The notes below the pieces were generated by a model. It did not search any database. It was not told the origin of the DNA and saw nothing but the letters and a program-made list of their open reading frames with translations. Shown here one piece after another: positions 17,704 through 37,255 of a stretch of 37,616 bases of DNA; the first letter of the stretch is position 1, and every line of letters starts with the position of its first letter. The stretch comes from Candidatus Venteria ishoeyi (lineage in GTDB: Bacteria > Pseudomonadota > Gammaproteobacteria > Beggiatoales > Beggiatoaceae). The stretch covers positions 1 to 37,616 of the forward strand of contig NZ_JAUCGJ010000045.1 in assembly GCF_030378065.1 (NCBI RefSeq). Reading direction: 5' to 3'. The position numbers and the translations under genes are program-made.

Positions 17704-18681
17704 ATGGCAAATGCTTGTAAAAAACCAGAATTTTCAATATTTGAACAACAACAGTTATTGCAGGGTAGTGAGTTACGCCAGGTAAAAATGGGGGAAGTCC
17801 TGTTTACACAGGGGGAAACGGGAGACTGCATGTATTGGCTGGAGTCTGGAGAAATTGAGATTCTGTTCAAAGAAGGACAATCTGGAAAAAGACTGCAAAG
17901 TGACGCTTATTTTGGTGAACTGGCTTTATTAACCGGTGGCAGCACCCGCAGCGCCACTGCTGTTGCCACACGTAACAGCCAACTGCGGGTTATTCAGCAG
18001 CAACGTCTGCAAGAGATTCAGCAATCACATCCTCAAATGCTGTGTCAGTTATTGCAACGTACCTGCGCTTATCTGATTGAACATGAAAATAGTCTGCTGG
18101 CAGATTTAAGTGAGCAAAATCGTTCCTTAACTCAGGCTTTAGATTATTTACGGCGTACCCGTGACGAGCTGGATGCCAGTGAAATCCGTGCCAATACCGA
18201 TGAATTAACTCAGCTTTATAACCGCCGCTGTTTTGAGCAACGCATGCATTATCTGTTTTCAGCTGAATATAATAAGGGTAAGAACCCACAGTTGGCAGTA
18301 TTAATTTTTGATCTGGACAGATTTAAGGCCATTAATGACACTCATGGTCACACTGCGGGCGATACCGTGCTGAAATGCCTGGCGCGTTTACTCAGAAGTT
18401 GTTGTCGTAATAATGATTTCCCCTGCCGTTTAGGAGGGGATGAATTTATTGTATTACTGCCTGATACGCAAAAAAAAGAAGCATTTGGCATGGCTGAATT
18501 GTTATATGATGCCATGCGCACCCTGAAAATTCGCATACCCACCACAACCATACAAGTGACTGTCAGTATCGGACTAACCTTATATCGCGCAGGTGATACG
18601 ACAAAAATGCTAATGGAACGTACCGATCAGGCGTTGCATCGCGCCAAACAACAAGGTCGGGATCAAATTGTTGAAGTTTAA
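17704..18681 (+). CDS. Cyclic-nucleotide-binding diguanylate cyclase
   Basis: The protein is 325 residues and soluble. Residues about 8-125 form a cNMP-binding domain with an intact phosphate-binding cassette (YFGELALLTGG then RSATAVA). A short coiled linker (about 138-160) leads to a GGDEF domain at about 163-325. The active-site motif is RLGGDEF, and RNND just before it fits the RxxD product-inhibition site. NRRCFEQRM, FDLDRFKAIND and GHTAGD are the usual metal and nucleotide motifs. It should make c-di-GMP under control of a cyclic nucleotide, probably cAMP. Because Pil-Chp systems in Pseudomonas raise cAMP, its position divergent from pilG suggests a link between surface sensing and c-di-GMP. 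The link is inference. Confidence 0.9.
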   Translation: MANACKKPEFSIFEQQQLLQGSELRQVKMGEVLFTQGETGDCMYWLESGEIEILFKEGQSGKRLQSDAYFGELALLTGGSTRSATAVATRNSQLRVIQQQRLQEIQQSHPQMLCQLLQRTCAYLIEHENSLLADLSEQNRSLTQALDYLRRTRDELDASEIRANTDELTQLYNRRCFEQRMHYLFSAEYNKGKNPQLAVLIFDLDRFKAINDTHGHTAGDTVLKCLARLLRSCCRNNDFPCRLGGDEFIVLLPDTQKKEAFGMAELLYDAMRTLKIRIPTTTIQVTVSIGLTLYRAGDTTKMLMERTDQALHRAKQQGRDQIVEV

Positions 18682-31889: not shown

Positions 31890-32276
31890 CTAAATCCAGT
31901 TTTCAGTGCAATCCAGGTGGCTTCTGACTTGTTGTATGCCGTCCATGCCTTGTTCTAACATGACACTCAGCGGTGTTTTGTCCTGAAAACGGCGATTTGG
32001 CGTGGTCAGCCAGATTTTACCCATGGCTTTATTGTGCGGATAGGTGATTAGCAGGGATTCATGGATGCGTAAAAAACTAACTGCACGGTGCAGCGTGTCG
32101 TGGTCTTCCGGTAATGGCGTACCACCCTGATAACGTTTTAAGGCGCGGGGTTTGGTTTTTTCAGGCAAGCCCAGCAAATTAATTTGTGAAACCGGTTCAA
32201 TTTTCCAGTAGTTTAATAAATTAATGATACTCAACGCCAGTTCGGTGCGCTCCTGCTCGGTGAGGTCGTGCGTCAT
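31890..32276 (-). CDS. Xre/MbcA/ParS-type antitoxin-like protein
   Basis: The protein is 128 residues. The N-terminal half contains a helix-turn-helix-like region (SQINLLGLPEKTKPRALKRY). The C-terminal half reads NRRFQDKTPLSVMLEQGMDG, then VRSHLD, which fits the Xre/MbcA/ParS (DUF2384) toxin-binding domain, in which 'P...F.GKTPLELM..G..GL..V..YLD' is typical. Such antitoxins normally neutralise RES-domain NAD-degrading toxins. No RES gene is adjacent; the downstream gene is cnoX. It may be a solitary regulator. AAGGAG is well placed. Upstream, ATTGATG occurs twice 13 bases apart near 32315-32335, a possible operator. Confidence 0.75.
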   Translation of the reverse strand: MTHDLTEQERTELALSIINLLNYWKIEPVSQINLLGLPEKTKPRALKRYQGGTPLPEDHDTLHRAVSFLRIHESLLITYPHNKAMGKIWLTTPNRRFQDKTPLSVMLEQGMDGIQQVRSHLDCTENWI

Positions 32277-33182: not shown

Positions 33183-33779
33183 ATGAATCATTCAGCAAGC
33201 AACAGTGTTTTTCCAAGCTGTTTTATGGCAGCGGATATTAACCTGATCATGACCGCTTTGCGTTTTTCCGCCGAGCGGCATAAGGATCAACGGCGTAAAG
33301 ATGTGGAAGCCTCACCTTATATTAACCATCCGATCCAGGTAGCAGAAATTTTATGGCGCATTGGTGAAGTCCATGACATTACCACGCTGATTGCCGCGCT
33401 GTTACACGATACGCTGGAAGATACTGAAACCACAGCCGATGAATTAGAAGCCCATTTTGGTCTGGAAATTCGCACGGTGGTGGAAGAAGTGTCTGATGAC
33501 AAATCCTTATGCGCCGCAGAACGCAAACGCTTGCAAATCGAACACGCTGCATCGATTTCCTTGCAGGCGAAATGGGTGAAACTGGCAGATAAAATCTGTA
33601 ATGTATACGACATTACTCACAATGCGCCGCCGCGCAACTGGTCACAGGAAAGAAAGCATGCGTATCTGGATTGGAGTGATTGTGTCGTTGCAGGTTTACG
33701 CGGCAGTAACGCCAAACTGGAAGCCTATTATGCTCAGATTGTAAATACCGGGCGAGAGCGCTTGAAACTCTCCTCCTAA
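33183..33779 (+). CDS. Small HD-domain alarmone hydrolase-like protein
   Basis: The protein is 198 residues (AAGG five bases before the ATG at 33183; an internal ATG at 33225 would give 184 residues, closer to the usual family start). HD motifs are intact: ALRFSAERHKDQRRKD, YINHPIQVAEIL (His), AALLHDTLEDTE (His-Asp) and KWVKLADKICNVYD (Asp). This matches the hydrolase half of RelA/SpoT and small MESH1-like enzymes. The likely reaction is removal of pyrophosphate from (p)ppGpp, or a related NADPH phosphatase activity. It lies eight bases after yciB. Confidence 0.87.
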   Translation: MNHSASNSVFPSCFMAADINLIMTALRFSAERHKDQRRKDVEASPYINHPIQVAEILWRIGEVHDITTLIAALLHDTLEDTETTADELEAHFGLEIRTVVEEVSDDKSLCAAERKRLQIEHAASISLQAKWVKLADKICNVYDITHNAPPRNWSQERKHAYLDWSDCVVAGLRGSNAKLEAYYAQIVNTGRERLKLSS

Positions 33780-33829: not shown

Positions 33830-33869
33830 CATAGGGAATAGAATGGGTTTAGTCCTGCCATTCCCTATG
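33830..33869. terminator. Inverted repeat at the convergent gene ends
   Basis: CATAGGGAAT (33830-33839) and ATTCCCTATG (33860-33869) are perfect 10-bp arms with a 20-nt loop. The right arm is the last codons of the GGDEF-EAL gene. It may terminate both converging units; no strong U-tract. Confidence 0.4.
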
Positions 33870-36185
33870 TTTGAAATCATGGTGAAATTGAATAAAGTCT
33901 TTGTTAGACATGGGTTTACCATATAAGTAACCCTGTAAAATATCACAATTTTCATTTTTTAGGAATTGCTGCTGCTGCAATGTTTCAACACCCTCTGCAA
34001 CAACTTTCAGATCCAGTGCATGAGCGAGGGCAATCGTTGCAGAACTAATGGCGGCATCATTCGCATCGGTTTCAATATCACGAATAAATTCACGATCAAT
34101 TTTAAGCGTTTGAATAGGCAAACGCTTTAGATAGGCAAGAGAAGAATAACCCGTACCAAAATCATCAATTGCTAAATCTATTCCCAAGGCACGAATTGCA
34201 TTCAATATTTTAATTGCGTACTGGGGATTATTCATGGCAACAGATTCAGTCACTTCAATTTCAATATTAAAACCTTGAAGTTGATATTTTTCAAATAATT
34301 CTTGAATAAAAATGACTAAATCAGCAGAATGTAGTTGGTGAGCAGAAATATTAAGTGACATTTTAACACCACTGATACCCTGCTTTTCCCACAGTGATTT
34401 TTGTTTAAATGCTTGTTGAATAACCCATTTTCCAATGGGTAAAATCAATCCCGATTCTTCAGCGATGGAAATAAAATCGACAGGTGAAATCAGGCCCTGT
34501 TCTGGATGATTCCACCGGATAAGGGCTTCTGCACCACATATTTCTTGAGTCGTAGTACTAATTTGTGGCTGGTAATAAAGTTCAAATTGATTTGTTTCAA
34601 TCGCCAGATGTAACTCAGCTTCTAATTTAATACGCCTTTCATTATCAACAGTCATTAATGATGAGAAAAACTGGAAGTTATTACGCCCTTCAGTTTTAGC
34701 ATGATACATAGCCATGTCAGCAGATTTCATCAGTTTCTCACTATTATTTCCATCACCTGGGTAATAACTGATGCCTATGCTACAACTGGAGAATATATGA
34801 TGCCCATCAATTTCATAAGGAAGTGATAGTTTTTTTAATATTTTATTGGCCAGATAACTGGCATTAAAATTAGATTTAATATCTGTTAAAACGACAATAA
34901 ACTCATCACCGCCTAAACGTCCTGTAATATCACTTTTACGTACACAGCGACTGATTCTTTTAGCTGTTTCTTTAAGAAATGAGTCACCTAAGTTATGCCC
35001 CAGCGTATCATTAATATCCTTAAATTTATCCATATCGATAAACATAACAGCCATTTTTTTATGGTTACGTTTAGCGCAGAGTAATGCTTGTTCTAACTGG
35101 ATTTCAAGACTATAACGATTTGCCAAACCCGTTAATGTATCAATATGAGCCAGTTCATTAATTTCTTTCTCATATTTTTTACGTTGAGTGATATCTCGTG
35201 AAAGAACAATAAAGCGACTACCTGTAAAATTATTCTGCGTTACATTAAATGGTTTTTTTTTAGCCACAGAAAGTTCAAACCAAAAGCTTTGTTGTTCAAT
35301 TGGTAGTACAATCTCATGACCATAGGAATCGCCTTTAATATCAGCCTCTTGTAAAGCCTTTATGACTATTTTTGCGGCTTCTTTTGGCAGGGCTTCAGTG
35401 ACTGTTTTATTAAGCAGGTTTTTACGTGCATCAATTAATAATTCTTCTTTATTTGTCATAATTTGTATATACTTACCATTGATATCCAGCTCAAAAAGCA
35501 AGTCAGGAATTGCCTGTAGCGTCGTTGACATATCATTGGCTAATTCTTTAATTGGTTTTATAATAAAAGAGCTGATGTAATGTGTTGCAATAATTCCAAT
35601 CAATAATAAAATGATAATTAATATTGTGAGATAAAAAATTCCCATCTTGAGTGATTTATCACGATTTTTAGTTGATAAGCCTACTTGAATCACACCAATT
35701 ATTTCATTTTTATAGCCGCCACGATAAGCCAGACTGACTTCACGTATAGGCTCATCATTAATAATAAAATGACGTGTATAAATTTGTGGTTTTTGTATCA
35801 GTTGTTCAATAATTTTTTTAGTTGATGGATTAATGGGTTTATCGTTGCGTTCAGGGTTGCTATGCGCCAAAATAATACCCTGAGTATTACTAACTAATAA
35901 ATATTTTATGCTGGGCTGTTCTTTTATTATTTCCTCAACTAAAAGCCGAGCATGATACTTACCTGAAAAACTAACCTTACTAATTGATTTTGCCAATACT
36001 TCTGTAATAATATGAGATAGTTTATCCTCCTCTTTATTCATGACATTAGTCATGAATATGCCGCCTGTCAATAATACTGTCAGCATTAATAACAAGATCA
36101 GAATACCAAAGCTTATATTAATAAAACGATCAGTTTCTACCGGGTTAGATAATTTTAATAAATTTCTAAGCAGATTATTCTTCAT
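33849..36185 (-). CDS. Membrane GGDEF-EAL c-di-GMP signalling protein
   Basis: The protein is 778 residues. TM1 is at about 24-48, a periplasmic sensor region at about 50-180, TM2 at about 184-206, a PAS-like domain at about 215-345, GGDEF at about 350-510 and EAL at about 520-778. GGDEF carries RLGGDEFIVVL, and RKSD just before it fits the inhibitory RxxD site. EAL carries GAEALIRW, EVTESVAMN, DDFGTGYSS, TLKIDREFI and AEGVE, so both domains look active. The start codon overlaps the stop of the upstream periplasmic binding protein gene by four bases. The two are therefore co-translated, and the binding protein probably delivers ligand information to the periplasmic domain. Confidence 0.93.
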   Translation of the reverse strand: MKNNLLRNLLKLSNPVETDRFINISFGILILLLMLTVLLTGGIFMTNVMNKEEDKLSHIITEVLAKSISKVSFSGKYHARLLVEEIIKEQPSIKYLLVSNTQGIILAHSNPERNDKPINPSTKKIIEQLIQKPQIYTRHFIINDEPIREVSLAYRGGYKNEIIGVIQVGLSTKNRDKSLKMGIFYLTILIIILLLIGIIATHYISSFIIKPIKELANDMSTTLQAIPDLLFELDINGKYIQIMTNKEELLIDARKNLLNKTVTEALPKEAAKIVIKALQEADIKGDSYGHEIVLPIEQQSFWFELSVAKKKPFNVTQNNFTGSRFIVLSRDITQRKKYEKEINELAHIDTLTGLANRYSLEIQLEQALLCAKRNHKKMAVMFIDMDKFKDINDTLGHNLGDSFLKETAKRISRCVRKSDITGRLGGDEFIVVLTDIKSNFNASYLANKILKKLSLPYEIDGHHIFSSCSIGISYYPGDGNNSEKLMKSADMAMYHAKTEGRNNFQFFSSLMTVDNERRIKLEAELHLAIETNQFELYYQPQISTTTQEICGAEALIRWNHPEQGLISPVDFISIAEESGLILPIGKWVIQQAFKQKSLWEKQGISGVKMSLNISAHQLHSADLVIFIQELFEKYQLQGFNIEIEVTESVAMNNPQYAIKILNAIRALGIDLAIDDFGTGYSSLAYLKRLPIQTLKIDREFIRDIETDANDAAISSATIALAHALDLKVVAEGVETLQQQQFLKNENCDILQGYLYGKPMSNKDFIQFHHDFKHREWQD

Positions 36186-37255
36186 GGTGTTAGTTTGAAT
36201 TTATTATTCCAATAGGGTTGATGTGATAACCATGGTTTTTTAAATGTCTGAGGAATATTTCCAGACCAGCCAGGGTAGTTTATTAATGTCTTTTGAGTAA
36301 TGGGATAAACGGGAATCAGGGTTAAGGAGGGAACCGTTTGTCCCAAAAGAATATCATAAGCAATAAGCAGTGCTTGCGCTCCCATAGCCCCACAAAATTG
36401 TGCTGTATCAATATGGGTTAAGCGACCAGCCTGAATATTTTTCACTGAAGCGGGATCACCATCCACTGTGGCGACAACGATTTCATTTCTCCCCGCTGCT
36501 ACGAGTTCATTCACCACATTAAGCCCGCCCCCGTCATTGACTGTAAAAATAACATCAATACTCCCTTGCTCCGGGAAATCTGCAATAATGGCCTTACCCG
36601 CCTTAGTACCACTGACAGGCTCTACTGCCTGATAGGTATTCAAAATCTGGTAGGATTGTTTATAGTCTCTTAAGGCATCCAGAAAACCATTAAGTCGCTC
36701 AACAGTTGACGAAACCAATGGATATTCGACAAGAATTAATTTTATCTTTTGCTTTGAAGGATATAAGGATGCAACATACTCGCCATTAAGATAACCGGCC
36801 TGATGGTTGTTTGATGTCACATAAGCAGTTAATTTTCCACCACTGATATATTGATCATAAGCAACGACGGGGATATTGTGTTTATTGGCTAATTTTAATG
36901 GTTCAGCCAGTGCGGCATTGTCTGTTGGTTGCACAATAATCATATCAGGTTTAAGTGATATTATTTTTGTCATTTGAACGATTTGCCGTTCAACGCCTTT
37001 TATATCATCTCCCGCAACCCGGGTAATTAATTTAATGTGTGGCAGCTCATTAGCCTCAGCCCTTTGATTAAGTGCATCCACTTTTTTTTCCAGGCCTTTT
37101 GCCATAGCCACCTGTCCAGGTATATTGACTGACCAGTACAATACGGCAATAGTAACTTCATCTTTAGCGGCAACAGTCTGGCTGCTAAAAAACAACAGGG
37201 CAGTACCCAGTATTAACAATATCGGGTAAGGATTTGACCTTAAATAACTAGACAT
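36182..37255 (-). CDS. Periplasmic sugar/TorT-type substrate-binding protein
   Basis: The protein is 357 residues from the ATG at 37255 (GAGGG eight bases upstream; a TTG at 37270 would add five). The signal peptide covers about 1-30 (ILLILGTALLFFSSQTVAA). The mature part is a type I periplasmic binding fold of the ribose/TorT group: VTIAVLYWSVNIPGQVAMAK, DMIIVQPTDNAAL, IPVVAYDQYISGG, YVTSNNHQAG, TVNDGGGLNVVNELVAAG and TVDGDPASV. ABC permease and ATPase genes are not adjacent; the partner is the GGDEF-EAL sensor, coupled by an ATGA overlap. TorT similarly feeds a sensor kinase. The ligand is not predictable. Confidence 0.9.
   Translation of the reverse strand: MSSYLRSNPYPILLILGTALLFFSSQTVAAKDEVTIAVLYWSVNIPGQVAMAKGLEKKVDALNQRAEANELPHIKLITRVAGDDIKGVERQIVQMTKIISLKPDMIIVQPTDNAALAEPLKLANKHNIPVVAYDQYISGGKLTAYVTSNNHQAGYLNGEYVASLYPSKQKIKLILVEYPLVSSTVERLNGFLDALRDYKQSYQILNTYQAVEPVSGTKAGKAIIADFPEQGSIDVIFTVNDGGGLNVVNELVAAGRNEIVVATVDGDPASVKNIQAGRLTHIDTAQFCGAMGAQALLIAYDILLGQTVPSLTLIPVYPITQKTLINYPGWSGNIPQTFKKPWLSHQPYWNNKFKLTP

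What the first reader, a model, noticed from the sequence alone, without database searches (positions are those of the whole stretch)
33849..37255. Periplasmic binding protein coupled to a GGDEF-EAL sensor instead of an ABC transporter
The binding protein has a signal peptide and a ribose/TorT-type fold. Its stop overlaps the start of a two-TM protein with a periplasmic domain and both c-di-GMP making and breaking domains intact. This predicts a two-component ligand-to-c-di-GMP switch analogous to LuxP-LuxQ or TorT-TorS.
Basis: partly seen in the sequence, partly recalled or inferred. Interest (0 to 1): 0.6.

Follow-up and report, generated by a model that had tools for sequence, protein, structure and literature searches.

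The report
Sugar-type binding protein switching c-di-GMP receptor
A periplasmic sugar-type binding protein is made together with a membrane enzyme that can make and destroy the signal c-di-GMP; relatives in many bacterial phyla keep the same partnership but often with a different signalling output, which points to an unidentified, widely sensed small molecule.

Summary
Window 36182-37255 (-) is a secreted ribose-type binding protein (SBP). Its stop overlaps, as ATGA, the start of a 778-aa protein (33849-36185, -): TM, single Cache domain, TM, PAS-like region, GGDEF, EAL, both catalytic motifs intact. The genome has one Peripla_BP_4 match and no PF02653 (RbsC-type) permease match. Their output is a histidine kinase in 44 and GGDEF-EAL in 14, all 14 in Pseudomonadota. 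Among 89 immediate same-strand neighbours outside the pair, ABC families match at most one protein each. SBP and sensor occur in the same genomes (3 of 369; 2 of 42) and their trees agree. Best reading: a transporter-free co-receptor; ligand-loaded SBP docks on the Cache domain and shifts the balance between c-di-GMP synthesis and breakdown. New here are the RbsB-type SBP family, swappable outputs, wide spread and an invariant pocket. Binding, ligand and sign of control are untested.

The parts
36182..37255 (-). Periplasmic binding protein, Peripla_BP_4 / ribose-binding-protein fold, 357 aa
37166..37255 (-). Signal peptide (residues 1-30, ...TVAA|KDEV)
   Evidence: read by eye from the sequence; no predictor was run
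36182..36185 (-). ATGA overlap: stop of the binding protein, start of the sensor
33849..36185 (-). Membrane sensor, TM-Cache-TM-PAS-like-GGDEF-EAL, 778 aa
35649..36047 (-). Single Cache domain (residues 47-179), proposed docking site of the binding protein
   Evidence: Pfam sCache_3_2 E 5.8e-11; AlphaFold2 mean pLDDT 90.9 for residues 1-225; nearest solved folds include the WalK and CitA sensor domains
35178..35516 (-). PAS-like region (residues 224-336)
   Evidence: PAS_4 below cut-off, E 0.021
34677..35150 (-). GGDEF domain, motif RLGGDEF and RxxD site intact
33912..34616 (-). EAL domain, AEALIRW, IDDFGTGYSSL and AEGVE intact

Best explanation
The two genes make a transporter-free receptor. 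The secreted SBP closes on a small, probably sugar- or polyol-like ligand, docks on the periplasmic Cache domain of the co-translated sensor, and the change passes down TM2 and the PAS-like region to shift the balance between GGDEF (c-di-GMP synthesis) and EAL (breakdown). Shown: the parts, the gene overlap, the intact motifs, no PF02653 permease match in the genome, co-occurrence and tree agreement of SBP and sensor, and swapping of the output domain among relatives. Inferred: docking on Cache, ligand class, two-way output. The sign (loaded SBP favours synthesis, free sensor favours breakdown) is taken only by analogy with NspS-MbaA.
For: Pair conserved: in 66 of 80 relatives the sensor is the next gene, all 66 on the same strand. 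65 lie within 60 nt by script; 33 overlap, counted with the earliest possible start codon, so some overlaps are overstated. The 66th (L077, gap 772 by script) has its SBP split into two ORFs, the second overlapping the sensor by 4 nt. Of the 14 others, 5 stop at a contig end (L065, L072, L080, L091, L098), 2 (L027, L048) have the sensor elsewhere in the genome, 7 are a separate variant. Outputs of the 66: 44 HK, 14 GGDEF-EAL, 6 cut off, 2 undetermined; at least 6 output changes on the SBP tree, 3 forced by starred branches. Co-occurrence: same 3 of 369 class genomes and same 2 of 42 order genomes at high score. Trees: Spearman 0.63 over 64 pairs, best of 1000 shuffles 0.31; 0.56 over 1258 cross-phylum comparisons. 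No transporter. Pocket: of 13 ribose-contact positions of E. coli RBP (list recalled), six (D89, S103, R141, N190, D215, Q235) hold the same residue in 77 of 77 SBPs. Conserved Cache residues cluster in the turn K70-R80.
Against: No interface was predicted or measured. Cache domains often bind small ligands themselves (recalled). Covariation between the proteins exceeded shuffles, but its top pairs include residues in membrane helices and the shuffles do not keep ancestry. Adjacency and tree agreement are also expected if a two-gene unit is simply inherited together. Six searched genomes with a relative of this SBP (Bdellovibrio-like, Neptuniibacter) have no such sensor. G001 keeps both proteins unlinked, with a kinase output. 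The Cache match is weak in relatives: of 8 sensors scanned, 3 pass the sCache_3_2 cut-off, 4 fall below it and 1 (L030) is not listed. Seven of the 13 recalled pocket positions differ from RBP. Permease families other than PF02653 were not sought in the genome.
Confidence: 0.84

Rival explanations
1. The Cache domain senses its own ligand and the SBP is only co-expressed, for instance as a scavenger or buffer.
For: The nearest solved folds include CitA and other sensors that bind small molecules directly. SBP columns are more conserved than sensor columns (62% against 39%).
Against: Gene coupling and co-occurrence across phyla with different outputs and without ABC neighbours.
Confidence: 0.1
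2. The SBP serves a transporter encoded elsewhere, and its place beside the sensor reflects regulation of uptake.
For: 42 of 54 genomes with this SBP family have some BPD_transp_2 permease. In five related loci a sodium:solute symporter gene lies directly upstream of the SBP.
Against: The window genome, and 12 of 54 genomes in all, have no BPD_transp_2 match; ABC families match at most one of 89 immediate neighbours each.
Confidence: 0.04
3. The SBP is an AI-2 receptor of LuxP/LsrB type feeding a c-di-GMP enzyme.
For: Same Pfam family as LuxP and LsrB (PMC12268683, passages) and a ribose-like pocket.
Against: luxS in only 2 of 54 genomes carrying the SBP family, not in the window's own, so AI-2 could in general only be another species' signal; the best fold matches are ribose-binding proteins.
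Confidence: 0.05

Closest known systems
NspS-MbaA (Vibrio cholerae, Sinorhizobium meliloti)
   Same: SBP gene overlapping a downstream gene for a two-TM GGDEF-EAL enzyme; SBP state sets synthesis against breakdown of c-di-GMP (PMC8967002 and PMC9993111, passages)
   Different: NspS is PotD-like and binds polyamines; here the SBP is RbsB-like (Peripla_BP_4), the sensor has a single Cache domain, and many relatives carry a histidine kinase output instead
ScrB-ScrC (Vibrio parahaemolyticus)
   Same: Periplasmic binding protein switching a dual-function c-di-GMP enzyme (PMC10269520, one passage)
   Different: There a third gene, scrA, makes the signal; I did not search for a scrA relative, and the contig ends 361 nt upstream of the SBP start; ScrB was not compared with this SBP
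LuxP-LuxQ
   Same: SBP of the Peripla_BP_4 family (PMC12268683, passages) acting on a membrane sensor (recalled)
   Different: LuxQ is a histidine kinase (recalled); no LuxQ periplasmic family appears; luxS missing in 52 of 54 genomes
TorT-TorS
   Same: SBP plus membrane sensor (recalled)
   Different: TorT models far below cut-off; sensor domain here is Cache
RbsB with the ribose ABC transporter
   Same: Fold and six polar pocket residues
   Different: No RbsC-type permease match in the genome; RbsB model 84.4 bits against a cut-off of 337

Membership tests
SBP-coupled c-di-GMP receptors (NspS-MbaA kind) | SBP gene coupled to a gene for a membrane GGDEF-EAL protein | tested here: met
SBP-coupled c-di-GMP receptors (NspS-MbaA kind) | Intact GGDEF and EAL motifs | tested here: met
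   window row
SBP-coupled c-di-GMP receptors (NspS-MbaA kind) | Physical SBP-sensor contact that changes enzyme output | not testable with these tools
   no complex prediction or assay available; covariation uninformative
NspS-MbaA proper | PotD-like polyamine-binding SBP | tested here: not met
   only Peripla_BP_4 reported at E up to 1; best folds are ribose-binding proteins
LuxP-LuxQ | LuxQ-type histidine kinase partner | tested here: not met
   partner is GGDEF-EAL
TorT | NCBIfam TorT models above cut-off | tested here: not met
   23.2 bits against 310, 20 against 200
RbsB transport SBP | NCBIfam RbsB equivalog above cut-off | tested here: not met
   84.4 bits against 337
RbsB transport SBP | Cognate RbsC-type permease in the genome | tested here: not met
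   0 PF02653 matches in the window genome, 98.8% complete

The most novel reading that the evidence does not exclude
This SBP family is a dedicated, transporter-free receptor for one and the same still unidentified sugar-like molecule across at least 14 phyla, wired through one Cache input module to either a histidine kinase or, in Pseudomonadota, a two-way c-di-GMP enzyme.
Probability: 0.45. Interest if true: 0.72.

Novelty: new variant of a known kind. Interest (0 to 1): 0.52.

Why it matters
Two papers cite two systems in which an SBP drives c-di-GMP enzymes (PMC11113362 and PMC9602780, passages). Here a single SBP and input module recurs in loci titled with 14 phyla, with interchangeable outputs and invariant pocket positions, so finding its ligand once could explain receptors in many uncultured bacteria. 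The natural HK and GGDEF-EAL versions also make a clean test of how one sensor module drives different enzymes.

Tried and rejected
Viral contigs: 9 stretches matched a pattern, none a relative. Plasmids: no match at E 1e-60. AI-2 as general self-made signal: luxS in 2 of 54. Covariation over 64 pairs (effective 45): top score 0.375, best of 60 shuffles 0.313, but top pairs include residues in membrane helices; dropped as evidence. SBP-sensor fusion: none seen among the 80 loci; the fusions L096, L097, L099 join the SBP to a second SBP (SBP_bac_3: L096 and L099 by Pfam; L097 by likeness to L096). Promoter and terminator scan: no clear excess of sites over shuffles. In the listed SBP fold matches (50 entries) no TorT or LuxP entry appears; that absence says nothing.

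Three ABC tests. One search used unselected ORFs as queries and found ABC-like ORFs in 3 of 84 loci (L033, L041, L058), all on the other strand. One search used a profile grown from a single permease ORF (11 hits, all in control loci) plus a motif search: 1 of 82 family loci (L058) against 10 of 20 controls within 4 kb; it is insensitive (control L119 was called negative though one search had flagged a same-strand ORF there), many loci are short, and the 10 positives come from 3 genomes. Searches, made while checking this report, used Pfam on immediate neighbours and are the better test; their family tables show only the first 25 of 88 and of 51 families.

The tree is the quick kind. HK labels rest on likeness to one kinase, five on Pfam, and L066 on likeness to L059.

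Literature: full-text searches listed no paper that I recognised as describing this pair; only CC-licensed papers are held. Seen: passages of PMC8967002, PMC9993111, PMC10269520, PMC8846402, PMC11113362, PMC9602780, PMC12268683; other papers only as search listings.

Full report
What is there. On the minus strand at the end of the contig lie two genes in tandem. The first (36182-37255) encodes a secreted 357-aa protein of Pfam Peripla_BP_4 (E 5.6e-37). The second (33849-36185) encodes 778 aa with sCache_3_2, a sub-threshold PAS_4 match, GGDEF and EAL. They overlap by ATGA, which suggests translational coupling (inference). The next gene downstream is convergent (33183-33779, +). The contig ends at 37616, so what lies further upstream is unknown.

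Structure. AlphaFold2 with 77 SBP rows gives mean pLDDT 94.9; the nearest solved folds are ribose-binding proteins (2ioy, Z 33.1, rmsd 2.0 over 272 residues). Sequence relatives in the PDB are mostly named as ribose or other sugar-binding proteins. With 66 sensor rows, residues 1-225 give mean pLDDT 90.9: a long first helix 15-72, a single Cache domain and a continuous helix 173-224. The nearest folds include the WalK and CitA sensor domains (5is1 Z 15.2, rmsd 2.2 over 131; 1p0z Z 13.7, rmsd 3.1 over 128; TlpQ 6fu4 Z 14.9; top row an integrative WalK model, Z 17.8). In relatives the Pfam Cache match is weaker: of 8 sensors, 3 pass the cut-off, 4 fall below, 1 is not listed.

Transport is unlikely. 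The genome has 1 Peripla_BP_4 match and 0 PF02653 matches. Of 54 genomes carrying the SBP family that I gave to (4 handles and 50 of the 78 non-duplicate loci), 12 lack PF02653. Neighbours: from 82 non-duplicate family loci I took the immediate same-strand gene before the SBP (51 found) and after the sensor, or after the SBP where no sensor follows (38 found), 89 proteins. Pfam families that match two or more of them do not include ABC_tran or BPD_transp_2, so each matches at most one; the commonest is Response_reg, 15 of 89, as expected beside kinases. As control I took the top 21 rows less one (the second domain of a protein already taken), that is 20 Peripla_BP_4 proteins outside the family from 9 genomes. 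Among 51 of their same-strand neighbours (up to two on each side) ABC_tran matches 6 and BPD_transp_2 4. A cruder test gave 1 of 82 against 10 of 20 within 4 kb, the 10 coming from 3 genomes.

The partnership is conserved. In 66 of 80 the next gene, on the same strand, matches the window sensor's N-terminal 335 residues, in whole or in part. Of the 14 without it, 5 run into a contig end. Seven are a variant with SBP_bac_3-like partners or fusions; L086 is below the Pfam cut-off, L092 and L100 gave no SBP_bac_3 match and were grouped by likeness. Six of these variant genomes were searched and none has the sensor. The 80 loci carry titles of 14 phyla, 7 loci having no phylum name; most are metagenome bins, whose names can be wrong.

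Co-occurrence. In 369 genomes drawn from the class, the SBP (E 1e-30) and the sensor (E 1e-15) each occur in the same 3, one being the window's own. In one search at most 7 candidates per genome were scored, and the profile contains rows of these three genomes. In the order, 4 of 42 genomes have an SBP match at E 1e-10, but only G000 and G001 are close (E below 1e-130, the others near 1e-11); the sensor occurs in exactly those 2 of 42. G001 matches the record titled Candidatus Albibeggiatoa and is of the window's family.

Outputs are swapped. Among the 66 sensors 44 end in a histidine kinase, 14 in GGDEF-EAL, 6 are cut off and 2 undetermined; all 14 GGDEF-EAL loci are titled Pseudomonadota. 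On the SBP tree (77 rows, 58 labelled) the label needs at least 6 changes, 3 forced by starred branches; shuffled labels need 12.7 on average and none of 500 is as low, so the label is clustered though it has changed. The window's nearest SBP by tree path, L024, stands beside a kinase; the next, L021, beside a GGDEF-EAL. SBP and sensor trees agree (Spearman 0.63, 64 pairs; 0.56 across phyla, rows without phylum left out). Not every relative need be bifunctional: of 16 rows (L023 repeats L017) 15 have GGDEF and L021 AGDEF; L074 and L076 lack RxxD; no EAL or AEGVE motif was found in L042, and the TE pattern was not found in L029, L042 and L078.

Ligand. Of 13 ribose-contact positions of E. coli RBP (list recalled), six polar ones are kept in 77 of 77 SBPs (D89, S103, R141, N190, D215, Q235). 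The other seven differ: N13 is I, F16 Q, N64 Q and R90 Q in 77 of 77, F15 is G in 70, F164 is V in 75, F214 is I or V in 74 (F in 2) (N13, F15 and F16 were placed through the S. agalactiae RbsB alignment). This suggests one conserved, sugar-like ligand that is probably not ribose itself (inference). luxS is found in 2 of 54 genomes, so AI-2 made by the same cell is not the general signal.

Mechanism. In NspS-MbaA, norspermidine-loaded NspS favours synthesis, while apo or spermidine-bound NspS leaves MbaA as a phosphodiesterase (PMC8967002, passages). By analogy the SBP here would dock on the Cache domain, perhaps at the conserved turn K70-R80 between the first two helices, and act through TM2 and the PAS-like region. 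Docking, ligand and sign are not shown.

What is known. SBP activation of receptors is described as widespread, with at least 13 SBP families involved (PMC11113362, PMC9602780, passages), and PBP-clan domains as prevalent in c-di-GMP proteins (PMC8846402, passages). So the kind of system is known. An RbsB-type SBP family with a modular Cache input, HK or c-di-GMP output and wide spread was not found described in the searches made. The first-stage reading is supported.

Noticed in passing
L126:2416-5876, L127:5001-9175, L128:4896-8415, L125:2479-5912: A second group of Peripla_BP_4 SBPs lies next to GGDEF-EAL (L126, L127, L128) or histidine kinase (L125) genes; their first 310 or so residues match neither the window sensor nor any Pfam family at E 0.001. 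The SBP to c-di-GMP link may have arisen more than once.
   Followed up: partly
L096:6926-8683, L097:6917-8683, L099:5388-7133, L086:7917-8774, L092:7951-8790, L093:7954-8745: In Bdellovibrio-like genomes and Neptuniibacter the same SBP family is fused to, or followed by, an SBP_bac_3-like protein with a CPY(L/F/Y)C motif, without the membrane sensor.
   Followed up: partly
L062, L068, L074, L076, L081: A sodium:solute symporter gene sits directly upstream of the SBP in five related loci (cluster; Pfam SSF in 5 of 89 neighbours, E 2.7e-50); a possible hint to the ligand.
   Followed up: partly
L063, L075, L079, L085: A shared ORF of about 394 aa directly upstream of the SBP in four Campylobacterota loci; OprD porin matches 2 of the 89 neighbours, perhaps these.
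   Followed up: no
window 33183-33779 (+): HD_4 domain protein (E 9.5e-17), perhaps a (p)ppGpp hydrolase (recalled), convergent with the pair.
   Followed up: no
window 31890-32276 (-): Protein with an Xre/MbcA/ParS C-terminal toxin-binding domain (E 1.2e-8); no toxin partner looked for.
   Followed up: no
window 17704-18681 (+): A second GGDEF protein, 325 aa; the genome has 39 GGDEF matches.
   Followed up: no
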